Shown: in pieces, positions 5,690 to 33,271 of the stretch
How positions within the stretch are numbered: the stretch's first letter is position 1
Layout of the letters: the number at the start of each line of letters is the position of its first letter
Assembly: GCF_045679555.1 (NCBI RefSeq)
Contig: NC_092092.1
Location: forward strand, 22,806,969 to 22,870,968
Direction: 5' to 3'
DNA: 64,000 nucleotides
From: Salvelinus alpinus
Lineage: Eukaryota > Chordata > Actinopteri > Salmoniformes > Salmonidae
Position numbers and translations under genes: made by a program
Notes under the pieces: model-generated
What the model was told of the DNA's origin: nothing
Database searches by the model: none
Seen by the model: only the letters and a program-made list of their open reading frames with translations

Positions 5690-6350
5690 GTCATCTCATT
5701 TAATAATTGGGTTGAAATGGCGTGGAAACAACGTTGATTCAAACAGATTTTGCCCAGAGGGAAGTCAAACTCATTCTAGACCATTCTAGATCAGCCAAGA
5801 CCCCCAAGTCAATGACCCTTTCAAAAAGGTGGCTGTTGTGTCATCACCCCTAACCTTTGGCCACATATTCTCCAACAAATAAAGGTATTCACTTTGTCAG
5901 TAACGCACAACATGGAAAGGAAAAACAGAATAGCCGCCCCATGCATTCACCAACAGGATAAGGAATGCTGGAGGGAAAACTGCTGCTTATGAGCAGAGTG
6001 GGAACTGGTCTGGTGAGTGGCAAGAGAGGGATGTTGCCAGAGGTTGGGGTGAAGACATAAACCTTCACAACAAAAACATTGTCTAGTGTAACCAGAGAAT
6101 GAAGAGGAAGTGAGTCCCCACTCCCTGTTTTTTCCGATTCAATGAAAGTCAATGAACTAAGAAGACCAGACCCAGCTGCTATTGCATTGGTGTCTATGGG
6201 AAACCCACCCCGTGAAATAGACCGGAACTGACAATTTTATTTCAATGGTAAATGCCTGAGTGAAATATCTTCATTTATCCACCATCTTTGGTGTAACTCA
6301 TAGACAGTGGGGTAAAGTACTTAAGTAAAAATACTTTAAAGTACTACTTA

Positions 6351-7957
6351 CAATTGAAGTCGGAAGATTACATACACCTTAGCCAAATACATTTAAACTC
6401 AGTTTTTCACAATTCCTGACATTTAATCCTTGTAAAAATCCCAGTATTAGGTCGGTTAGGATCATCACTTCATTTTAAGAATGTGAAATGTCAGAATAAT
6501 AGTAGAGAGAATGATTTATTTCAGCTTTTATTTCTTTCATCATATTCCCAGTGGGTCAGAAGTTTACATACACTCAATTAGTATTTGGTAACATTGCCTT
6601 TAAATTGTTTAACTTGGGTCAAACGTTCCGAGTAGCCTTCCACACGCTTCCCACAATAAGTTGGGTGAATTTTGGACCATTCCTCCTGACAGAGCTGGTG
6701 TAACTGAGTCAGGTTTGTAGGCCTCCTTGCTCGCACACGCTTTTTCAGTTCTGCCCACAAATGTTCTATAGGATTGAGGTCAAGGCTTTGTGATGGCCTC
6801 TCCAATACCTTGACTTTGTTGTCCTTTAGCCATTTTGCCACAACTTTGGAAGTTTGCTTGGGGTCATTGTCCATTTGGAAGACCCATTTGCGACCAAGCT
6901 TTAACTTCCTGACTGATGTCTTGAGATGTTGCTTCAATATATCCTCATAATTTTCCTTCTCATGAAGCCATCTATTTTGTGAAGTGCACCAGTCTTTCCT
7001 GCAGCAAAGTACCCCCACATAATGATACTGCCACCCCGTGCTTCACGGTTGGGATGGTGTTCTTTGGCTTGCAAGCCTCCCCCTTTTTCCTTCAAATGTA
7101 ACGATGGTCATTATGGCCAAACAATTCTATTTTTGTTTCATCAGACCAGAGGACATTTCTCCAAAAGTATGAACTTTGTCCCCATGTGCAGTTGCAAACC
7201 GTAGTCTGGCTTTTTTATGGCAGTTTAGGAGCAGTGGCTTCTTCCTTGCTGAGTGGCCTTTCAGTTTACGTCTATATATGACTCATTTTACTGTGGATAT
7301 AGATACCTTTGTACCTGTTTCCTCCAGCATCTTCACAAGGTCCTTTGCTGTTGTTCTGGGATTGATCTGCACTATTCGCACCAAAGTATGTTCATCTCTA
7401 GGAGACAGAACGTGTCTCCTTCCTGAGCGGTATGACGGCTGCGTGGTCCCATGGTGTTTATGCTTGCGTACTATTGTTTGTACAGATGAACGTGGTACCT
7501 TCAGGCATTGGAAATTGCTCCCAAGGATGAACCAGACTTGTGGAGGTCAAATATATTTTTTCATGATTTCTTTTGATTTTCTCATGATGTCAAGCAGAGA
7601 CACTGAGATTGAAGGTAGGCCTTGAAATACATCCACAGGTACACCTCCATTTGACTCAAATTATGTCAATTAGCCTATCAGAAGTTTCTAAAGCCATGAC
7701 ATCATTTTCTGGAATTTTCCAAGCTGTTTAAAGGCACAGTCAAACTTCTGACCCACTGGAATTGTGATACAGTGAATTATAAGTGAAATAATCTATCTGT
7801 AAACAATTGTTGGAAAAATGACTTGTGTCATGCACAAAGTAGATGTCCTAACCAACTTGCCAAAACTATAGTTTGTTAACAAGAAATTTGTGGAGTGGCT
7901 GAAAAACGAGTTTTAATGACTCCAACCTAAGTGTATGTAAACTTCCGACTTCAACTG
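6351..7957 (-). mobile_element. Sleeping-Beauty/Tss-type Tc1-like transposon
   Basis: The element is 1607 bp with TA duplications at 6349-6350 and 7958-7959. Outer ends carry the GAAGTCGGAAG...ACATACAC direct-repeat type, and inner copies (CAGTGGGTCAGAAGTTTACA at 6549, inverted near 7742-7760) give the IR/DR layout characteristic of the salmonid Tc1 group. The minus-strand transposase is broken. Confidence 0.92.
6578..7620 (-). pseudogene. Sleeping-Beauty-like transposase pseudogene
   Basis: The C-terminal half is open over 6578-7018 (146 codons), with the catalytic Asp in FQMDNDPKQTSK and the Glu in LDLNPIEHLWAELKK, ending at the family-typical TKY. Upstream, translation in other frames recovers [12 protein letters not shown] near 7135-7165, so the first Asp is retained. 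The N-terminus (MRKSKEI near 7575-7600) has a deletion and a stop just inside the helix-turn-helix. All three catalytic acids are present but frameshifts and an early stop separate them. Confidence 0.88.
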
Positions 7958-8624
7958 TAAGTCGATTTTTGGGGTATCTGTACTTTACTCTTTATATTTT
8001 TGACTACTTTTACTTTTACTTCACTACATTCCTAAAGAAAATAATGTACTTTTTACTCCATACATTTTCCCTGACACCCAAAAGTACTCGTTACATTTTG
8101 AATGCTTAGTATGACAGAAAATGGTCCAATTCACACACTTATCAAGAGAACAACCCTGGTCATCGCTACTGACTCTGATCTGGCAGACTCACTAAACACA
8201 AACGCTTCATTTGTAAATTATGTCTGAGTGTTTGCAGTGTGCCCCTGGCTATCCGTAAATATAAAAAAACATTAAAATTGTGCCGTCTGGTTTGCTTAAT
8301 ATAAGGAATGTTTTATTATTCATACTTTTACTTTTAATACTTAAGTATATTTAAGCAATTACATTTATTTTGATTACTTAAGTATATTTAAAACCAAATA
8401 CTTTTAGACTTTTTCTCACTTCTACTTGAGTTATTTTCTATTAAGGTTTCTTTACTTTTACTCAAGTATGACAATTGGGTACTTTTTCCACCACTGCTCA
8501 TACAGATCCTATTAAATTAATAGTATTATAATTCCTAATTCTATTTTGTAACTAACTAATAAATCGATACCCTAGGAACGATGCATGATGTTTCTGATTG
8601 TCATAATTAAATGGATTTGATTGA

Positions 8625-20319: not shown

Positions 20320-21558
20320 ATTAACCTTCTCTAACCCAGAAACTGTTCATGATGAAACAATTAACACGACAAACTGAGTTCTTCTTTATTTCCATCATAC
20401 ATTCTTCATTTAAATAATTAATAACCAAAGTGTGTTTAAAATTGGACATTGGTCAAATTGGGTACTGCAGTCCAATGTTAGACACGTGTGTGCCTTTATT
20501 GCATCCCATAATACTTCTGGAATCAAGAATGCTGCTGCCTTTTAAATGGAATTTTTTTGGAACATTTTGTTCAAGTTAAATATTGCCCACCACCGTATCC
20601 TGTCTTCCCAACAGATTAGACGGGATCGATTCAGCTCTATTAAAGTGTGTTCCTTGCACAAGAAGCTATAGAAACACTGCATCAGCTACCAGAGGAAATC
20701 ACTGTTGGGCTATTAGGCTCCACTGGTCTAATCAATCACACCTATAGAGTCTCAGTTCCATTTATACCATTAATTAACCTTGGCTTCAATCAAAAACAGT
20801 GGTACATTGCCCATTAAATAAATGTTAATTAATCTTCAAAGAACACACACAAATACAAAAAAACATAAGAATAATGCAAAAGGCAAGTGCATACAAGTGA
20901 GAATAACAGCGATGACTGGAAAAAGCTAAGCCTTACTTGAACATGGAATTAATGGAATGTTTGAGTAGGTCTATGAGTCAGTAATAATAGCTTCCTGGAA
21001 AGCGGGCTTCTGGAAAGTCACTTGTGGATATGTCCAATAGACACTAATTGAGCTGATAGTATAGTCTATTACGGCAGATGAGATTGTCCTTCTCCTGGGA
21101 ATTTAGGAAATGGGTGTTTATCAAGGCACAATTACAGGCCTGACAGCTCTAATGGGGGAGAGAACTCTTCAGTAACTTGTTTTTACTTAGTCACAGCGAA
21201 CATTGGATATTATTCAGTTTGGTTTCTTTTTAAATTCCTAAAATCCTTCACATGAAATGAGTGGACCATGATTAATTTACATACTTCTAGAAATAGGGAT
21301 GAACTAACTATATATTCTCTAGTCTAAATACATATAGGTATACTACAAGAAGATGTATAAATGCAAATGCTTCTACAAATGCTCTGTTGTCGGTCCTCTG
21401 TAATCACTCATAGGTAGATACTGTACATCTCTGTTGCTGAGATTAGTCCTCTAGCATTTCTCAGAAGTAGGTAACACTATTATCTTAGCTTCTATCAAAT
21501 TATTGTATAAATTCCTCATCAATCATGTTGGCAAACACAGAACTGCATCTGAAGGACT
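20320..21558. other. No gene recognised
   Basis: Apparently single-copy, AT-rich non-coding sequence. No domain or element end was identified. Confidence 0.5.
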
Positions 21559-21616
21559 ATGACAGCCAGTGGAGGAAAAAGTGCTAAAGGTAAAGGTAAA
21601 GGTTAAGGTAAAGATA

Positions 21617-23444
21617 GCTTAAAACTTCTTCTTAATAGGGGGCGCCATTTCCACTTTGGGAAAAAATAGTGCCCAAATTAAATGGCCTCGTACTCTGTTC
21701 TAGATCATATGATATACATATTATTATTACTATTGGATAGAAAACACTCTGAAATTTCTAAAACTGTTTGAATTATATCTGTGAGTAAAACAGAACTCAT
21801 TTGGCAGGCAAACTTCCAAACAGGAAGTGAAAATTCTGAAATGGGTCTCTGTGAAGGGCTGCTCCTATTCAATTGCCTTGTATTTATGGATATGAATGCA
21901 CTTCATACGTCTTCCACTAGATGTCAACAGGCAGTAGAACGTTGAATGAGGTGTCTAGCCTGATGTGGGACCAAATGAGAGCTTTTGGAGTGACAGGTCA
22001 GCCATATTGGCAGTATTTTGCTGCGCACCTGGGAGCACCATATCATTTTCTGCAATGCGTTAGGTAGACACGAAGAAATGCTCCGTCTGGGACGTTATTG
22101 GATACATATGAGAAAAACATCCTAAAGATGGATTTTGAACTGAGTTTGACCAGTTTATTCGACTTTTATTATGACTTTTGGAATTTTTCGTTCCATACGC
22201 CAAACTTTCATGGACACGTGAGCACCATTATGCTAGCCAAAGTTGCTAATTCGACAGAAGAAATGGACATTCTAAAACAACGACAAAACAACGATTTATT
22301 GTGGAACTAGGCCTCCTGGCACTGCATTCTGATGAAAGTTCATCAAAGGTAAGAGAATATTTATGATGTTATTTCGTATTTTTGTTGAATATGTTGACTC
22401 CAACATGGCGGAGAATGGCTGAGCGCTGTCTCAGATTATTGTATGCTGTGCTTTTTACTAAAGTTATTTTTTTAAATCTAACGCAGCGGTTGCATTAAGA
22501 ACCAGTGTATCTTTAATTATATGTCCAACATGTATTTTTCAGCATAGTTTATGATGAGTTTTTCTGTTAGATTACGTGACTCTCCAAAATTTCTCCGGAC
22601 AATTTGGAGCATTTTTGCGCCATGTTCACAATGTAAAACCAGGATTTGTAGCTATAAATATGCACATTTTCGAACAAAACATAAATGTATTGTATAACAT
22701 GATGTTATAAGACTGTCATCTGATGAAGTTGTTCAAAGGTTAGTGATTAATTTTATCTCTATTTGTGGGTTTTGTGAAAGCTATCTTTGCGGTGAAAAAA
22801 TGGCGTTGTGTTTTGGGCTATTGTGGTGAGCTAACATAAATATATGTTGTGTTTTCGCTGTAAAACATTTTAAAAATCAGACATTTTGGCTGGATTCACA
22901 AGATGTTTATCTTTCATTTGCTGTACAACATGTATTTTTCATAAATGTTTTATGATGAGTATTTATGTATTTCACGTTGCTCTCTGTAATTATTCTGTCT
23001 GTTTTGGTGCCATTTATGATCATGGCACCAATGTAAAACCAGGATTTGTAGCTATAAATATGCACATTTTCGAACAAAACATAAATGTATTGTATAACAT
23101 GATGTTATAAGACTGTCATCTGATGAAGTTGTTCAAAGGTTAGTGATTATTTTTATCTCTATTTGTGGGTTTTGTGAAAGCTATCTTTGGTGTTGTGTGT
23201 TGCGCTATTGTGGTGAGCTAACATAAATATATGTTGTGTTTTCGCTGTAAAACATTTTAAAAATCGGACATGTTGGCTGGATTCACAAGATGTTTATCTT
23301 TCATTTATTATACTATATACTGTATACTGGACTTGTGATTTCATGAAATTATATTATATGATATTCCCTGTGGCGCTAGGCTAGGCTATGCTAGTCAGCG
23401 TTTCTGATGAGGAGGATCCCGGATCCGGGAGGATGATTCGGTAA
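21617..23444 (+). repeat. Unclassified 1.8 kb repeat inserted in the MITE, with a 400 bp internal duplication
   Basis: It starts near TTAAAACTTCTTCTTAATAG and GGGGGCGCCATTTCCACTTT and ends near GATCCCGGATCCGGGAGGAT. The MITE resumes directly on each side. The junction words TTAA (left) and GTAA (right) could be a decayed 4 bp duplication. Open frames inside (22098-22310, 22886-23110) show no domain. Confidence 0.7.
22521..23320 (+). repeat. Two tandem 400 bp units
   Basis: AACATGTATTTTTCA, ATGTAAAACCAGGATTTGTA and GACTGTCATCTGATGAAGTT each recur almost exactly 400 bases later (for example 22631 and 23031). The first part of the units has diverged, the rest is nearly identical, suggesting recent duplication or conversion. 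Confidence 0.88.
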
Positions 23445-23702
23445 TAGAAAATGACTCAAGTAAAAGTGAGTCACCCAGTAAAATACTACTTGAGTAAAAG
23501 TCTAAAAGGATTTGGTTTTGGTTGATACTTAAGTATCAAAAGTAAATGGAATTGCTAAAATGTACTTAAGTATCAAAAGTCAAAGTAAAAGTATAAACCA
23601 TTTCAAATTCCTTACCAGACGGCACAATTTTTTATTTGACGGATATCCAGGGGCACACTACAACACTCATACATAATTTACAAACAAAGCATTTGTGTTT
23701 AC

Positions 23703-24104
23703 GCTGACAGACACAGCAAACCTTCTTGCCACAGCTCGCATTGATGTGCCATCCTGGATGAGCTGCACTACCTGAGCCACTTGTGTGGGTTGTAGACTCC
23801 GTCTCATGCTACCACTAGAGTGAGAGCACCGCCAGCTTTCAAAAGTGACCAAAACATCAGCCAGGAAGCATAGGAACTGAGAAGTGGTCTTTGGTCACCA
23901 CTTGCAGAATCACTCCTTTATTGGGGGTGTCTTGCTAATTGCCTATAATTTCCACCTTTTGTCTATTCCATTTGCACAACAGCATGTGCAATTTATTGTC
24001 AATCAGTGTTGCTTCCTAAGTGGACAGTTTGATTTCACAGAAGTGTGATTGACTTGGAGTTACATTGTGTTGTTTAAGTGTTCCCTTTATTTTTTTGAGC
24101 AGTG
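23703..24104 (-). mobile_element. Truncated Tc1/mariner-like element, N-terminal and right end
   Basis: The right terminal repeat (inverse of CACTGCTCAAAAAAATAAAG) ends at 24104, followed by TA. The minus-strand frame gives [35 protein letters not shown] (to about 23702), a helix-turn-helix of the Tc1/mariner type. The catalytic region and other end are gone. Confidence 0.75.
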
Positions 24105-24106
24105 TA

Positions 24107-25207
<1,101 letters not shown>

Positions 25208-25215
25208 GACTACTG

Positions 25216-27720
25216 CAGTGCTTCTCAATTATTTTCTGTTACAACCCCCCTAGGAAGAAGTAAACATTTCGCGCCCCCCAACTCTCCGCCGCGACTGTAA
25301 ATAGTATCATTTGTCTATAAAATTGTTATAAGTACACCTCTGCATAACATTGTATCCTTATTAACATTAAAGAAAACAAAAAAAGAAAAAAGAAAGAAAT
25401 ATAGATCAACTTACAACAAAGAATAACTTTATTAACACTGTTTTTTAGTCTGTAACAGAAAAGACTTAAAGTGCATCAATTTGCCTGAAATGTTAAAAAA
25501 AAATTAAATCCTTATTTAAACTGTAAACGTTTTTTGACCATTTGATACTGAAAAATAAAATTAAATATAATCAATAAATAATAATAAATTCAAATTGATC
25601 AGCAACATTAACTCAGGAGCACAATATATGAAACACTTTGACCTATAAAACAAAAATGAATAAAACAATTTGTGCTGATTTTTTAAAATCAAAATGAGGA
25701 AGTCAGGATTAATGGCAACAATGAGCACGTTTTGCAGAGCACAGCTTTTCGAAGCGGGGTTTGAAGCATGATACTGCAACTCTCAGCTCCTGCTCAATGT
25801 TTAGCTGGGACCTGTACTTGGTCTTCAGTGCAGCAACAGCAGAGAAGCCAGTCTCACAAAGATAAGATGTTGCAAAAGGAAGAAGAATACCCATGGCCCT
25901 CTGCCCTAAGAGTGGATACTGCCTCTCTACACTCAGCCAGAATTCACTCAGTGTCTGTGATGTGAACCTCAGTCTCAATGTGGAGTCAGACGTCATATCA
26001 ATGAACTGGTCCTCCTCTGCAGAGCTGAAACCAGTTGGAGCTGGTGCATTGAAAGGATCTCTCACCCAGTCATATTGGGAACTGTTTTCAGGGAAGTACT
26101 TTTTAAAGAATCCCATCAGTGATGACATATGCTCCTTAATATATGGAATCACTGAGGTGGCATCATAGTCAGTAGTGTCAACAAATTCATGCAGGTTCTC
26201 GAATGAATCAGTATTTCCTTCATCAAGTCGCCTGCCCCACATTGCAAGCTTTCGAATGAAAGAGCTGATCTTGTCTGTGACCTGAGGGAGGTGTTTATCT
26301 TTCCCTTGAAGCTGTAGATTTAGTTCATTTAGCTTTCCAAATATGTCACTCAGGTAGGCCAGTTTTGCCAGGAAGTTCTCATCACAAAATTTCTCTGCGA
26401 GGTCATACTTGTGCTCCTGCTCCGAAAACATTCTTATCTGCTCAAAAACTCAGGACAAGACTTTTCCTCGTGACAGCGACCTTGCTTCACTGTGAAACAG
26501 CACAGCTTGATGTTCAGCTCCCATCTCCTCACAGATAGCAGAGAAGACTCTTGTTTTTAGTGGTCTTTATAAAATTGACTACACCTACAATGTCAGTCAT
26601 AACCTCACTTAATTCAGAGGAAAGGTGCCTTGATGCCAGTGCTTCTCTGTGTATAACACAGTGTGTCCACTCAGCATTAGGTGAGGCCTTCTTGAGGAGT
26701 GCCCGAAGTCCTTTTCTCATCCCTGCCATGGTCTGTGCACCATCACTGTAAACACCAATGCAGTTCTCCCACTTTAGCCCATTCTCAGTCAGGAAGCAGT
26801 CCAGCATTTTGAATAGCTCTTCAGCTGTGGCTCTGTCTCTGACATATTTACAAAAAAGTAGATCCTCACACAGGGAGTTTGTCATGTCAAAACGTACATA
26901 AGCAATAAACAAACAGTCTTTGTTGCTGTCAGTTGCTTCATCGAACTGTAAGGCAAAACGTTTGTCTTTGAGTTTATCTACCAGCTGTTCTTTAAGATCG
27001 TTAGCAATGTCATTTATACGTCTGTGGACAGTGTCATTGGACAGAGGGATAGTTTTTATTTTTGCAGCACTTGCGTCATCCAGCATGACAGAGACCATGT
27101 CTAATGCTGCAGGCAGTATCAGCTCCTCTGCTATGGAGTGTTTTTTTTTGCACTGAGCAATTTGGTACGCCACCTTATATGATGCTAACAGTGCTCGCTG
27201 GTTTACTGAAGTAGCATTCACAAAGCGGGACGATTGTTGGCAATGTTCGGCACGTTTTCGCAGAAAAAACTCAAGCGGCTTATCAGCGTGATTGGGGTGT
27301 AATGTCTTTAAGTGACGCCTTCATTTATTTGGCTTCATGCTGTCCGCTGCCAAAATTTTTAGACACAGCAAACATACCGGTCTTTCCTCGTCTCCCACCG
27401 TAATCACAGTGAAGCCAAGCGCTACATACGCTTCGTCATATTTCCTCGTCTTAGCTTTCGGGAGACTTACGTTTGTTTCATTATCTCCGTCTCTCTCCGC
27501 CTTTCTTTTCATCCCTGTTAAATATTTTTCCATGGTGTCTCTTAAGGGTTTGTTATCTGCACTTCATATCTCCTGCTCTGTTCTGTGTGCTCTTGTTCGG
27601 TGCAAAAAAAAACTACTCCCTGCGGCAAAAAAAAGCATGTTCCCCGGGGTCACACGCACCCCCCCTGGCATCGCTCCGAGCCCCCCCGGGGGGGCGCACC
27701 CCACTATTTGAGAAGGACTG
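25216..27720 (-). mobile_element. hAT DNA transposon (Charlie/ZBED-type), 2505 bp, inactive
   Basis: The ends are CAGTGCTTCTCAATTATTTT and, inverted, CAGTCCTTCTCAAATAGTGG. Perfect 8 bp duplications GACTACTG lie at 25208-25215 and 27721-27728. Removing the element rejoins the LINE codons for LDYCNALL. GC-rich runs near 27650-27700 form a subterminal block. The transposase is on the minus strand. Confidence 0.95.
25709..27533 (-). pseudogene. hAT transposase pseudogene with BED zinc finger (ZBED/SCAND3-like)
   Basis: Reading from 27533: a basic N-terminus (MEKYLTGMKRKAERD), then a BED-type finger with C54-x2-C57 and HLKTLH. A TGA at about 27318-27320 interrupts it just before the histidines. 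The frame continues to 26529 with hAT RNase-H-like motifs QFDEATD, YSDGAQTMAG and THCVIHREALA. A frameshift near 26545 and a stop near 26450 follow. The last part (25709-26431) has LCETGFSAVAALKTKYRSQL, the C-terminal hAT dimerisation region with its conserved Glu. It resembles domesticated ZBED genes, but the disruptions and flanking element ends show it is a dead transposon. Confidence 0.9.
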
Positions 27721-27728
27721 GACTACTG

Positions 27729-28167
27729 CAATGCTCTACTTTCCGGCTACCCGGATAAAGCACTAAATAAACTTCAGTTAGTGCTAAATACGTCTGCTAG
27801 AATCCTGACTAGAACCAATTTTTTTGATCATATTACTCCAGTGCTAGCCTCCCTACACTGGCATCCTGTTAAGGCAAGGGCTGATTTCAAGGTTTTACTG
27901 CTAACCTACAAAGCATTACATGGGCTAGCTCCTACCTATCTTTCCGATTTGGTCCTGCCGTACATACCTACACGTACGCTACGGTCACAAGACGCAGGCC
28001 TCCTAATTGTCCCTAGAATTTCTAAGCAAACAGCTGGAGGCAGGGCTTTCTCCTATAGAGCTCAATTTTTATGGAATGGTCTCCCTACCCATGTGAGAGA
28101 CGCAGACTCGGTCTCAACCTTTAAGTCTTTACTGAAGACTCATCTATTCAATAGGTCATATGATTGA
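27729..28167 (+). pseudogene. LINE C-terminal segment (continues 24107-25207)
   Basis: After the hAT insertion the LINE resumes with YCNALLSGYPDKALNKLQLVLNTSARILTRT, then a 128-codon open frame (27781-28167) with HITPVLASLHWHPVKARADFKVLLLTYKALHGLAPTYLSDLV and RAFSYRAQFLWNGLP...STFKSLLKTHLFN, ending at a natural-looking TGA. This is the conserved C-terminal region of L2-like RT proteins. Confidence 0.88.
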
Positions 28168-29052
28168 GTGTAGTCTGGCCCAGGAGTGTGAAGGTGAACG
28201 GAAAGACTCTGGAGCAACGAACCGCCCTTGCTGTCTCTGCCTGGCCGGTTCCCCTCTCTCCACTGGGATTCTCTGCCTCTAACCCTATTACAGGGGCTGA
28301 GTCACTGGCTTAGTGGTGCTCTTCCATGCCGTCCCTAGGAGGGGCGCGTCACTTGAGTGGGTTGAGTCGCTGATGTGGTCTTCCTGTCTGGGTTGGCGTC
28401 CCCCCTTGGGTTGTGCCGTGGCGGAGATCTTTGTGGGCTATACTCGGCCTTGTCTTAGGATGGTAAATTGGTGGTTGAAGATATCCCTCTAGTGGTGTGG
28501 GGGCTGTGCTTTGGCAAAGTGGGTGGGGTTATATCCTGCCTGTTTGGCCCTGTCTGGGGGTATCATCGGATGGGGCCACAGTGTCTCCTGACCCCTCCCG
28601 TCTCAGCCTCCAGTATTTATGCTGCAGTAGATTGTGTCGGGGGGCTAGGGTCAGTCTGTTATATCTGGAGTATTTCTCCTGTCTTATCCGGTGTCCTGTG
28701 TGAATTTAAGTATGCTCTCTCTAATTCTCTCTTTATTTCTCTCTCTCGGAGGACCTGAGCCCTAGGACCATGCCTCAGGACTACCTGGCTTGATCACTCC
28801 GTGCTGTCCCCAGTCCACCTGGCCGTGCTGCTGCTCCAGTTTCAACTGTTCTGCCTGCGGCTATGGAACCCGGACCTGTTCACCGGACGTGCTACCTGTT
28901 TTCAACTCTCTAGAGACAGCAGGAGCGGTAGAGATACTCTCAATGATCGGCTATGAAAAGCCAACTGACATTTACTCCTGAGGTGCTGACTTGTTGCACC
29001 CTCGACAACTACTGTGATTATTATTATTTGACCATGCTGGTCATTTATCAAC
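28168..29052 (+). other. LINE 3' untranslated region, proximal part
   Basis: G/T- and C-rich sequence continuous with the LINE stop codon, ending at the ATTTGAAC duplication (29053-29060) of the next insertion. It resumes at 31446. Short open frames here are incidental. Confidence 0.75.
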
Positions 29053-29171
29053 ATTTGAACTAGAGGTCGACTGATTAATCGGAATGGCCGATTAATTAGG
29101 GCCGATTTCAAGTTTTCATAACAATCGGGAATTGGTATTTTTGGACACAGATTTGGCCGTTTAAAAAAAAT

Positions 29172-29835
29172 ATATTTTTTTTATTACACCTTTATTTAAC
29201 TAGGCAAGTCAGTTAAGAACACATTCTTGCCTCCCGGGTGGCGCAGTGGTCTAGAGCACTGCGTCGCAGCGCTAGCTGTGCCACCAGAGACTGGGTTCGC
29301 GCCCAGGCTCTGTCGCAGCCAGCCGCGACCGGGAGGTCCGTGGGGCGACGCACAATTGGCCTAGCGTCGTCCGGGTTAGGGAGGGTTTGGCCGGTAGGGA
29401 TATCCTTGTCTCATCGTGCACCAGCGACTCCTGTGGCGGGCCGGGCGCAGTGCGCGCTAGCCTGGTAGCCAGGTGCACGGTGTTTCCTCCGACACATTGG
29501 TGCAGCTGTCTTCCGGGTTGGAGGTGCGCTGTGTTAAGAAGCAGTGCGGCTTGGTTGGTTGTGTTTCGGAGGACGCATGGCTTTCGACCTTCGTCTCTCC
29601 CGAGCCCGTACGGGAGTTGTAGCGATGAGACAAGATAGTGATTACTAACAATTGGATACCACGAGATTGGGGAGAAAAAAGGGGGTAAAATGTTTTTTTA
29701 TTTTTTTCAATGACGGCCTAGGAACGGTGGGTTAACTGCCTTGTTCAGGGGCAGAACGACAGATTTTTACCTTGTCAGCTGGGGATTCATTTTTGCAACC
29801 TTCCGGTTACTAGTCCAACGCTCTAACCACCTGCC
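29172..29835 (-). mobile_element. tRNA-derived SINE interrupted by a second SINE
   Basis: On the minus strand the head (GGCAGGTGGTTAGAGCGTTGG, complement near 29835) carries tRNA-like A/B-box sequence. The tail reads GTTCTTAACTGACTTGCCTA then TTAAATAAAGG (complement at 29186-29225). The two halves are separated by the SINE at 29230-29700. Confidence 0.75.
29230..29700 (+). mobile_element. tRNA-derived SINE, second family
   Basis: The head CCTCCCGGGTGGCGCAGTGG holds an A-box-like TGGCGCAGTGG, and GGGTTCGCGCCC near 29293 is a degraded B box. The body includes ACACATTGGTGCAGCTG and TTCGGAGGACGCATGGC, ending in a short A/G-rich tail. A diverged inverted copy lies at 53761-54125. Confidence 0.8.
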
Positions 29836-31445
29836 TTACATTGCACTCCACGAGGAGCCTGCGTGGCAGGCTGACTACCTGTTACGTGAGGGCAGCAAGA
29901 AGCCAAGGTAAGTTGCTAGCTAGCATTAAACTTATAAAAAACAACAATCTTCACATAATCACTAGTTAACTACACATGGTTGATGATATTACTAGTTTAT
30001 CTAGCGTGTCCTGCGTAGCATATAATCGATGCGGTGCCTGTTAATTTCTCATCGAATCACAGCCTACTTCGCCAAACGGGTGATGATTTAGCACTGTCGT
30101 TGCACCAAACCTAAACATAAATATCAATGCCTTTCTTTAAAATCAATACACAAGTATATATTTTGAAACCTGCATATTTAGTTAATATTGCCTGCTAACA
30201 TGAATTCCTTATAATTAGGGAAATTGTGTCACTTCTCTTGCGTTCTGTGCAAGCAGTCAGGGTATATGCAGCAGTTTGGGCCGCCTGGCTCGTTGCGAAC
30301 TGTGTGAAGTCCATTTATTCCTAACAAAGACCGTAATTAATTTGCCAGAATTGTACATAATTATGACATAACATTGAAGGTTGTACAATGTAACAGCAAT
30401 ATTGAGACTTAGGGATGTCACGCGTTAGCTAAAATACGGAACGGTTCCGTATTTCACTGAAAGAATAAACGTTTTGTTTTCGAAATGATAGTTTCCGGAT
30501 TCGACCATATTAATGACCAAAGGCTCGTATTTCTGTGTGTTATTATGTTATAATTAAGTCTATGATTTGATAGAGCAGTCTGACTGAGCGATGGTAGGCT
30601 GCAGCAGGCTCGTACGCATTCATTCAAACAGCACTTTCGTGCGTTTTGCCAGCAGCTCTTCGCAATGCTTCAAGCATTGAGCTGTTTATGACTTCAAGCC
30701 TATCAACTCCCGAGATTAGGCTGGTGTAACCGATGTGAAATGGCTAGCTAGTTAGCGGGGTGCGCACTAATAACGTTTCAATCGGTGATGTCACTCGCTC
30801 TGAGACTTGGAGTAATTGTTCCCCTTGCTCTGCAAGGGCCGCGGCTTTTGTGGAGCGATGGGTAACGATGCTTCGAGGGTGGCTGTTGTCGATGTGTCCC
30901 TGGTTCGAGCCCAGGTAGGGGCGAGGAGAGGGACGGAAGCTATACTCTGTTACAATGGCAATACTAAAGTGCCTATAAGAACATCCAATAGTCAAAGGTA
31001 TATGAAATACAAATCGATAGAGAGAAATAGTCCTATAATTCCTATAATAACTACAAGCCAAAACTTCTTATCTGGGAATATTGAAGACTCATGTTAAAAG
31101 GAACCACCAGTTTTCATATGTTCTCATGTTCTGAGCAAGGAACTTAAACGTTAGCTTTTTTACATGGCACATATTGCACTTTTACTTTCTTCTCCAACAC
31201 TTTGTTTTTGCATTATTTAAACCAAATTGAACATGTTTCATTATTCATTTGAGGCTAAATAGATTTTATTGATGTATTATATTAAGTTAAAATAAGTGTT
31301 CATTCAGTATTGTTGTAATTGTCATTATCACAAATACATTTTAAAAAATCGTCCTATTAATCGGTATCGGCTTTTTTTGGTCCTCCAATAATCGGTAACG
31401 GTATCGGGGTTGAAAAATCATAATCGGTCGACCTCTAATTTGAAC

Positions 31446-31682
31446 ATCTTGGCCATGTTCTGTTATAATCTCCACCCGGCACAGCCAGAAGAGGACTGGC
31501 CACCCCTCATAGCCTAGTTCCTCTCTAGGTTTCTTCCTAGGTTTTGGTCTTTCTAGGGAGTTTTTCCTAGCCACCGTGCTTCTACACCTGCATTGCTTGC
31601 TGTTTGGGGTTTTAGGCTGGGTTTCTGTACAGCACTTTGATATATCAGCTGATGTAAGAAGGGCTATATAAATACATTTGAT
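31446..31682 (+). other. LINE 3' end with TTTGAT tail
   Basis: It continues the LINE 3' region after the hAT-type insertion and ends in CTATATAAATACATTTGATT with TTTGAT repeats, the 3' tail seen on other copies (for example about 63019-63036). The MITE sequence CAGAGGCAGTAGGGATGACC resumes directly afterwards. Confidence 0.8.
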
Positions 31683-31742
31683 TTGATTTGATCAGAGGCA
31701 GTAGGGATGACCAGGGATGTTCTCTTGATAAGTGTGTGAATT

Positions 31743-32019
31743 TGTAACGTATACGCTGGGAGGCAGAAAGCAAGTGCAGTTGGTGAGTTTAATAATAAAC
31801 GGAGCATCAAACAATATAACCAACACGAGTAGCAATACTGACTGGGGAAAGAACCTAAGGGAGTGCCAGATATAGGGGAGGTAATAAGTGAGGTAATGGA
31901 GTCCAGGTGTGTCTGATGATGACATGCAGGAGCGCAATGATTGATACCAGGTGTGCATAATGATGGATCCCAGGACCAGTGTCAAACGCCGGAGGGGAGG
32001 AGCGGGAGTAGACGTGACA
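31743..32019 (-). mobile_element. Solo LTR (TGTCACGTCTACTCC family), 277 bp
   Basis: On the plus strand it runs from TGTAACG to GTAGACGTGACA, flanked by perfect GAATT duplications (31738-31742, 32020-32024), and it interrupts the MITE word GTGTGAATT/GACCATTTT. It belongs to the same family as 38634-38935. Confidence 0.92.
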
Positions 32020-32213
32020 GAATTAGACCATTTTGCGAATACTTTTTGGGTATCAGGGAAAATGTAAGGAGTAAAAAGTACATTATTTTCTTTAGGAATA
32101 TTGGGAAGTAAAAGTAAAGTTTAGCAAAAATATAAATAGTAAAGTACAGATACCACAAAAAACAACCAAAGTAGTACTTTAAAGTATTTTTACTTAAGTA
32201 CTTTACACCATTG

Positions 32214-32740
32214 ATGATATCAGAATTGACATTATGTATCTGAATGCTACAAATCTATTGCCTGATGACCCAACCTGAATTTAATTCCGCTGCTCTATTC
32301 ATCGCTACATACATTCAGTCTGAATTTGCCATCATAGTTGTTTTTGTGACGTTAAAACGAGGGGCATTGTACAAAACAAATGTATCAGCAATTGGGTTGT
32401 CTAACAAATCTAACCAATCAAAGTATCAAAGTTGATAACGTCATCATGTAGGCTGGCTCTTCCCCAGGCCATCAGTTTCTGGGACCAATCAGAACGGTCG
32501 GAATGTGTTCGCATTCCAGAAGTCGTCGGGGAGGGAGTCAAATCCAGACTCACGGTTGAAAAGAAACGTTCGTGGGCGTGGCGTTTGGCTGGAGCGATGT
32601 GGATGTGTAGCCAGGCAAACGAACTTAGAGAAATGGCTCAGAAATTATATTTTTTCACAATGCTAGATTCAGTCAACAGAACGCTTCTTATGATGCTGCT
32701 ACTCCCTTGGTAAAGTCAGACGGTAACCTTCCATAAAATA
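32214..32740. other. Non-coding, GC-richer patch
   Basis: It contains two CCAAT-type words (32410, 32482) and GTGGGCGTGG near 32572, which can occur in promoters. There is no adjacent gene and no recognised exon, so a repeat origin is equally possible. Confidence 0.35.
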
Positions 32741-32741
32741 C

Positions 32742-32843
32742 ACTGCATTCCAAATGGCACCCTATTCCCTATGTAGGGCACTACTTTTGACAGGGCACTG
32801 GAAAAAATGAATACACTATATAGGGAATAGGGTACTGCCGCAG
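32742..32843. repeat. Small palindromic MITE
   Basis: CACCCTATTCCCTATGTAG near 32758 recurs inverted as CTATATAGGGAATAGGGT near 32816. The arms flank a short centre with ACTACTTTTGACAGGGCAC. It has the look of a 100 bp foldback MITE. Confidence 0.7.
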
Positions 32844-32844
32844 G

Positions 32845-33271
32845 TGTGACTGATTGCCTCGCTAACTCTCAAAGCAATCTCATTGGTTAATATGTTTCCT
32901 GACCTACAGTATATAAAACCCCTGTTTCTTTCTGTTTGAGGGGCGGCTGCTCACGGGAGGTGATGCAGTCCAGAGGTAAGGTGGTTTCCGGGAGTATGGG
33001 GGAAATAGATTCTCGTTAGTTTGAGGAGGGTAACAAGATGGATGCTTACCTCCTGGGCTGCACCGCCTCCTGTGCCATTTTGTTACTTTGATTGTTTGTT
33101 GCATGGTTTGTGAATGTTCCTGGGCCAGTGAGAATGGCCACTGCTATAAAGGTGAACTTGTAAACCATTCCCTATTATTTATTAAATGCTGAAACTGGTC
33201 CTTGGTTTCTACTTCACTCTGCCTGCTCAACTCAAATCCAAAAGAACCTGTCACTTTTCCACCTCTTGGCA
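32845..33271 (+). mobile_element. 5' LTR of a retrotransposon relic
   Basis: It contains a TATA-like CAGTATATAAAACC (32906) and an ATTATTTATTAAATG polyadenylation-type region (about 33174). It ends ...TCTTGGCA two bases before a primer-binding site. The left edge (TGTGACTG at 32845) is tentative. Confidence 0.6.

What the first reader, a model, noticed from the sequence alone, without database searches (positions are those of the whole stretch)
21567..32213. A 0.56 kb MITE expanded to 10.6 kb by insertions nested up to five deep
Four colinear pieces of one hAT-type MITE bracket a 1.8 kb repeat, a Tc1 fragment, a LINE and a solo LTR. The LINE is itself split by a hAT (25216-27720, GACTACTG duplications) and a hAT-type element (29061-31437, ATTTGAAC duplications). 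The latter contains a SINE split by a second SINE. Nesting order: MITE > LINE > hAT-type element > SINE > SINE. It gives a relative clock for several families in one locus.
Basis: partly seen in the sequence, partly recalled or inferred. Interest (0 to 1): 0.8.

Follow-up and report, generated by a model that had tools for sequence, protein, structure and literature searches.

The report
Dated nest of jumping genes
A short old mobile element in what appears to be a salmon-family genome has been stretched to 10.6 kb by younger mobile elements landing inside one another; a sister chromosome region still shows the empty site, and one nested layer arrived as cargo, so the pile-up can be read as a history but is otherwise ordinary for such a genome.

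Summary
The nest is real. Four pieces of one hAT-type MITE align in order to the copy at 6305-8496. The nested insertions are confirmed by empty sites in other LINE copies: 29 of 29 for the hAT, 25 of 29 for the hAT-type element. A colinear sister region on contig C3 lacks the whole 10.6 kb and keeps one ATGATAGC target, so the MITE most likely inserted after the two regions diverged. Two corrections. (1) The SINE inside the hAT-type element is cargo: 28 of 28 examined near relatives carry it at the same place, while 40 of 40 scored matches to a joined-flank query lack it. It predates the element's arrival, so the local history has four levels, not five. (2) The Tc1 fragment lies inside the LINE; a later deletion fused it to the MITE. 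Divergence from relatives fits the nesting: MITE 6.8%, LTR 3.7%, LINE and hAT-type about 2%, and 0.5-1.3% for hAT, 1.8 kb repeat, Tc1 and inner SINE; LINE against hAT-type is unresolved. A well-resolved example of a common situation, with a modestly interesting SINE-carrying hAT-type subfamily.

The parts
21559..21566 (.). left target-site duplication of the MITE, ATGACAGC
   Evidence: sister region C3 has ATGATAGC once
21567..21618 (+). MITE piece 1 (terminal, begins CAGTGG)
   Evidence: global alignment to rc 6305-8496; weak alone by BLAST
21619..23441 (+). 1.8 kb repeat in a TTAA site of the MITE (left TTAA 21619-21622, right copy degenerate GTAA); internal ~405 bp direct duplication
   Evidence: 19 of 19 other MITE copies match the empty-site pattern here, 18 of 19 by one BLAST piece
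23445..23702 (+). MITE piece 2
23703..24104 (.). one end of a Tc1-type element, about 1.2 kb lost; inserted at TA 24105-24106 inside the LINE; fused to the MITE by a deletion with 2-3 bp microhomology
   Evidence: HTH_7 hit E 2.3e-5
24105..25215 (+). LINE, part 1 (reverse transcriptase with stops); ends with GACTACTG
   Evidence: RVT_1 E 2.4e-15 and 2.6e-8; LINE copies continue upstream of 24105
25216..27720 (-). hAT element, ends CAGTGCTTCTCAA / TTGAGAAGGACTG, duplications GACTACTG
   Evidence: 29 of 29 other LINE copies have the empty site; two of four fetched copies align end to end at 96%
27721..29060 (+). LINE, part 2; ends with ATTTGAAC
29061..31437 (+). hAT-type element (TAGAGGTCGAC ends) of the SINE-carrying subfamily, duplications ATTTGAAC
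   Evidence: 25 of 29 LINE copies show the empty site; 8-bp duplications in other copies
29183..29840 (-). outer SINE (approximate limits), split by the inner SINE; cargo of the hAT-type element
   Evidence: same place in 28 of 28 examined relatives; absent from 10 of 10 fetched SINE-less copies
29229..29697 (+). inner SINE (approximate right limit), inserted into the outer SINE at this locus
   Evidence: absent in 8 of 8 and 20 of 20 other copies; copies with target duplications elsewhere
31438..31689 (+). LINE, part 3 with TTTGA tail repeats
31690..31742 (+). MITE piece 3
   Evidence: 94% to 8128-8180
31743..32019 (+). solo LTR, TG...CA, GAATT duplications
32020..32213 (+). MITE piece 4 (terminal, ends CATTG); its first 5 bases are the right GAATT
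32214..32221 (.). right target-site duplication of the MITE, ATGATATC
6305..8496 (-). second copy of the same MITE, split by a Tc1 element (TA duplication), used as reference

Best explanation
After the two sister regions diverged, a hAT-type MITE inserted at ATGATAGC. It then served as landing ground. An LTR retrotransposon inserted and was reduced to one LTR, and a LINE inserted. Into the LINE went a hAT-type element that already carried a SINE, and (order among them not fixed) a hAT element and a Tc1. A second SINE landed in the carried SINE, and a 1.8 kb repeat landed in the MITE. A deletion then removed about 1.2 kb of the Tc1, the LINE's 5' end and about 12 bp of MITE, joining MITE to Tc1. 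Shown: the structure, empty sites, target duplications, absence in the sister region, cargo status of the outer SINE, and that no second copy of the deletion junction was among the scored matches. Inferred: LTR-LTR recombination, transposases acting in trans, the deletion as one event, the identity of the sister region as the Ss4R homeolog, and dates. No function for the nest is indicated; it is most likely neutral accumulation.
For: Colinear MITE pieces. Empty site in the colinear sister region C3. Empty LINE sites 29 of 29 and 25 of 29; MITE copies crossed by one BLAST piece at the 1.8 kb, LINE and LTR sites in 18, 18 and 16 of 19. LINE copies run through the Tc1 site. MITE/Tc1 junction spanned only by the window itself among 40 scored candidates of 1955. 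Outer SINE in 28 of 28 examined relatives, SINE-less family members in 40 of 40 scored joined-flank matches, a clean SINE target and a 0.988-supported split between the two forms. Divergence falls with depth: MITE over LINE in 100% of bootstraps, LINE over hAT 99.8%, LINE over Tc1 98.75%.
Against: LINE and hAT-type element are not separated by divergence (2.08 vs 1.98%, that order in 59% of bootstraps; 1.85 vs 2.12%, the reverse order, by three-point distances), so that step rests on structure alone. hAT-type over inner SINE has only 82%. MITE divergence moves from 3.9 to 7.9% with the consensus threshold. The LINE's own target duplication is lost in the deletion, so its clean insertion is inferred from the right junction. 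The inner SINE's target duplication is unclear in T-rich surroundings. By typed pattern 6 of 19 MITE copies missed at the LTR site and 2 of 19 at the LINE site; three and one of these remain uncrossed by BLAST. No sequence of another salmonid was available.
Confidence: 0.92

Rival explanations
1. All five levels are separate local insertions, the outer SINE having landed in the hAT-type element here.
For: The physical nesting is as described.
Against: 28 of 28 examined relatives at other loci carry the same SINE at the same place; the outer SINE of the window has 0 differences in 172 non-CpG sites (1 in 13 CpG sites) from the majority of those relatives.
Confidence: 0.03
2. The MITE predates the duplication of the region and was lost from the sister region by precise excision or deletion.
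For: MITE divergence (6.8%, bootstrap 4.3-9.4) is about equal to the per-lineage divergence of the sister flanks (6.4%), so the insertion could lie close to the split.
Against: The sister site holds exactly one target copy with no footprint and no remnant; hAT excision usually leaves a footprint (established knowledge, not tested here). All younger layers would still be local.
Confidence: 0.06
3. The nest is an assembly chimera of repeats.
For: All parts are high-copy repeats, the usual cause of misassembly.
Against: Target duplications match at three junction pairs exactly and at the MITE ends nearly, empty sites exist elsewhere, the flanks are colinear with C3, and the window has no N.
Confidence: 0.02

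Closest known systems
Repeat-rich salmonid genomes after Ss4R (Lien et al. 2016, PMC8127823; passages seen)
   Same: 58-60% repeats in Atlantic salmon, a low-similarity class of homeologous blocks at about 87%, expansions of Tc1-mariner transposons after the duplication; the sister flanks here differ by K 12.8%.
   Different: That paper is genome-wide and the passages concern Tc1; the word 'nested' does not occur in its main text. This is one resolved locus with an empty sister site.
MER6 MITE carrying a V-SINE domain (Luchetti et al. 2019, PMC6887750; abstract and outline seen)
   Same: A SINE piece spread as part of a DNA transposon family.
   Different: MER6 is mariner-derived and studied in mammals; here a hAT-type family with a SINE (HpaI-like, name recalled) in a fish genome, SINE-bearing and SINE-free forms side by side.
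Nested transposon stacks of plant and animal genomes (recalled)
   Same: Insertions within insertions used as a relative clock.
   Different: Here the sister region also supplies the empty site and a local rate.

Membership tests
hAT-type MITE (21567-32213 without the insertions) | 8-bp target duplication | tested here: met
   ATGACAGC/ATGATATC against single ATGATAGC in the sister region; exact 8-bp copies at other loci, e.g. rows 4, 5, 6, 74 and 81 of the 13 printed
hAT-type MITE (21567-32213 without the insertions) | short, many copies, inverted ends CAGTG | tested here: met
   ends CAGTGG...CCATTG, ~0.58 kb; 3314 first-look candidates
hAT-type MITE (21567-32213 without the insertions) | moved by a hAT transposase | not testable with these tools
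   no autonomous partner was sought
hAT superfamily (25216-27720) | 8-bp duplication and inverted CAGTG ends | tested here: met
hAT superfamily (25216-27720) | transposase with hAT domain | tested here: inconclusive
   Dimer_Tnp_hAT E 0.068 and DUF4371 E 0.079, both below cut-off; no PDB sequence match for the one piece tried
hAT-type element (29061-31437) | 8-bp duplication, inverted ends | tested here: met
   ATTTGAAC; of 8 other copies, 7 had both ends found: 5 exact, 1 with one mismatch, 1 without a duplication
hAT-type element (29061-31437) | hAT transposase or a link to an autonomous relative | tested here: inconclusive
   no coding match in the one ORF tried; the class rests on ends and duplication
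non-LTR LINE | reverse transcriptase | tested here: met
   RVT_1 E 2.4e-15 and 2.6e-8
non-LTR LINE | target duplication of this copy | tested here: inconclusive
   5' junction removed by deletion
Tc1/mariner (fragment) | TA target and Tc1 ends | tested here: met
   TA at 24105-24106; LINE copies have the uninterrupted site; a relative with both ends and TA in the sister region
solo LTR | TG...CA with 4-6 bp duplication and no internal region | tested here: met
   GAATT both sides; of 12 other copies looked at, 5-bp copies exact at L092 and L093 and 4 of 5 at L089
SINE (inner) | retroposition duplications at copies | tested here: met
   e.g. L098, L103, L105 of 12 printed
SINE (both) | tRNA-derived head | tested here: inconclusive
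   ARAGORN and Rfam at gathering score found nothing over 21000-33000; diverged SINE heads can escape these. SINE family names are recalled only

The most novel reading that the evidence does not exclude
One SINE insertion founded a SINE-carrying hAT-type subfamily that then spread by cut-and-paste, so part of this genome's SINE copies were moved by a DNA transposase rather than by a LINE. With homeologous empty sites giving both presence/absence and a local rate, such nests can be turned from relative into calibrated clocks.
Probability: 0.8. Interest if true: 0.45.

Novelty: new member of a known kind. Interest (0 to 1): 0.35.

Why it matters
Nested insertions are common, but this one could be checked at nearly every junction: empty sites in copies elsewhere, an empty sister site with a single target, and divergences that mostly agree with the order. 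It also shows a trap for nested-insertion clocks: a layer can be inherited cargo and therefore older than its container's arrival. Empty homeologous sites in a duplicated genome give a built-in calibration for dating transposon families.

Tried and rejected
No solved-structure match for the hAT piece tried. No tRNA or Rfam hit in 21000-33000. Literature searches listed, among the rows shown, no paper whose title or abstract start names this locus or a SINE-carrying hAT family in salmonids. Seen beyond the listings: passages of PMC8127823, PMC9778375 and PMC7599744, abstract and outline of PMC6887750. I considered whether the 1.8 kb repeat is piggyBac- or Kolobok-like because of TTAA; no inverted ends were seen by eye, so it stays unclassified. 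I considered a second copy of the nest elsewhere; none of the 40 scored candidates spans the junction. Other fish could not be compared: no fish genome besides the window's own is held.
Full report
Setting. The window lies at G000:C7:22806969-22870968 of a 2.37 Gb genome of 928 contigs. The window has no N.

The MITE. The copy at 6305-8496, with its Tc1 insertion (TA duplication) left out, is a 583 bp element. About 12 bp are missing between pieces 2 and 3, and a further internal gap follows the LTR. Of 19 other copies, one BLAST piece crosses the 1.8 kb site in 18, the LINE site in 18 and the LTR site in 16; the rest are partial or interrupted matches. By typed pattern the numbers were 19, 17 and 13 of 19.

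The sister region. The left flank was found at only two places in the genome, itself and C3. Left flank (21354-21567) and right flank (32214-32360) abut on C3 near 80061155, minus strand. Much of the right flank (about 32258-32618) also matches many other places, so it includes an older repeat present in both regions; the left flank and the first ~44 bases of the right flank do not. Eight segments between 15438 and 33759, picked from the hit list whose other rows I take for repeats, are in the same order and orientation. K2P is 12.8% over 2184 non-CpG sites, which fits the ~87% class of homeologous blocks in Atlantic salmon (PMC8127823, passages). C3 has ATGATAGC once; the window has ATGACAGC and ATGATATC at the MITE ends, each one change away. 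The whole nest is absent from the sister region, so the MITE most likely inserted after the two regions diverged. Calling it the Ss4R homeolog is an inference.

The LINE and its contents. Two LINE pieces carry RVT_1. In 29 of 29 other LINE copies (from the 40 best of 2793 candidates) the hAT site reads as one GACTACTG, and in 25 of 29 the second site reads as one ATTTGAAC. LINE copies continue upstream of 24105, and the Tc1 fragment ends at a TA there, so the Tc1 was inside the LINE. A Tc1 in the sister region with both ends shows that about 1.2 kb of the window's Tc1 is gone. The MITE/Tc1 junction shares TA or TTA between the two partners; among 40 scored candidates of 1955 only the window itself spans it. 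One deletion after the Tc1 insertion explains the loss of the Tc1 part, the LINE 5' end and the 12 bp of MITE together; that it was one event is inferred.

The cargo SINE. In 8 of 8 fetched full copies and 20 of 20 further left parts of the hAT-type element, all chosen from the 40 best of 5913 candidates, the outer SINE is present (one of the 20 only by its middle pattern) and the inner SINE is absent. A query joining the SINE's flanks gave 40 scored matches of 2233 candidates, and 40 of 40 run straight across the join. In 10 of 10 fetched ones there is no SINE; 8 of 10 read GGCCGATTACATTGCA, one has one base changed, and one lacks the TTACA part. In SINE-bearing copies TTACA stands right of the SINE in 8 of 8 and left of it in 5 of the 7 whose left side was located. 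A quick FastTree of 19 sequences (window, 8 SINE-bearing, 10 SINE-free, some rows partial) puts the 10 SINE-free copies apart with support 0.988. The simplest reading is that the SINE entered once, elsewhere, and travelled as cargo. MER6 in mammals is a precedent for a SINE piece spread by a DNA transposon (PMC6887750, abstract).

Order and dates. Differences from the majority of relatives at non-CpG sites, as K2P: MITE 6.78%, LINE 2.08%, hAT-type 1.98%, inner SINE 1.34%, hAT 0.99%, 1.8 kb repeat 0.81%, Tc1 0.76% (19, 28, 8, 12, 4, 5 and 11 relatives, 1 of 29 LINE copies dropped by the length filter). Three-point distances without any consensus, medians: MITE 7.9, LTR 3.7, LINE 1.85, hAT-type 2.1, hAT 0.9, 1.8 kb 0.8, Tc1 0.8, inner SINE 0.5. 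Bootstraps: MITE over LINE 100%, LINE over hAT 99.8%, LINE over Tc1 98.75%, hAT-type over inner SINE 82%, LINE over hAT-type 59%. Thus the parent-child pairs are compatible with the nesting within error, several are well supported, and LINE against hAT-type is not resolved. Values shift with the consensus threshold (MITE 3.9-7.9%), and relatives are the closest matches, not a random sample. Against 6.4% per lineage for the sister flanks, the MITE dates to around the split, the LINE to about a third of that time and the youngest layers to about an eighth. Absolute years are not claimed.

Verdict. The interpretation needs two repairs: the outer SINE is cargo, and the Tc1 belongs inside the LINE with a later deletion. 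Nests like this are expected in a genome rich in repeats, so interest is moderate.

Noticed in passing
21619-23442: The 1.8 kb repeat has 6340 first-look candidates; in 5 fetched copies TTAA stands at its left end (one with an extra A), the right end varies, and the window copy has a ~405 bp internal direct duplication. No inverted ends were seen by eye. Unclassified.
   Followed up: partly
6305-8496: Second MITE copy split by a ~1.6 kb Tc1 with ends CAGTTGAAGTCGGAAG (Sleeping Beauty type, recalled) and TA duplication.
   Followed up: partly
L011-L012 (C3:80062050-80063630): A Tc1 with both ends lies in the sister region about 0.9 kb from the empty site, its last ~408 bp 98% identical to the window's fragment: apparently independent young insertions of one family in both regions.
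   Followed up: partly
L012 (C3:80066271-80066574): The sister region has its own short 3' piece of the same LINE, 95-96% identical, at the place matching window 15561; the window lacks it there, and the hAT-type site in that piece is empty.
   Followed up: no
L055, L058: Two of four fetched hAT copies sit next to CGCTAGCGGAAC, a possible insertion-site preference.
   Followed up: no
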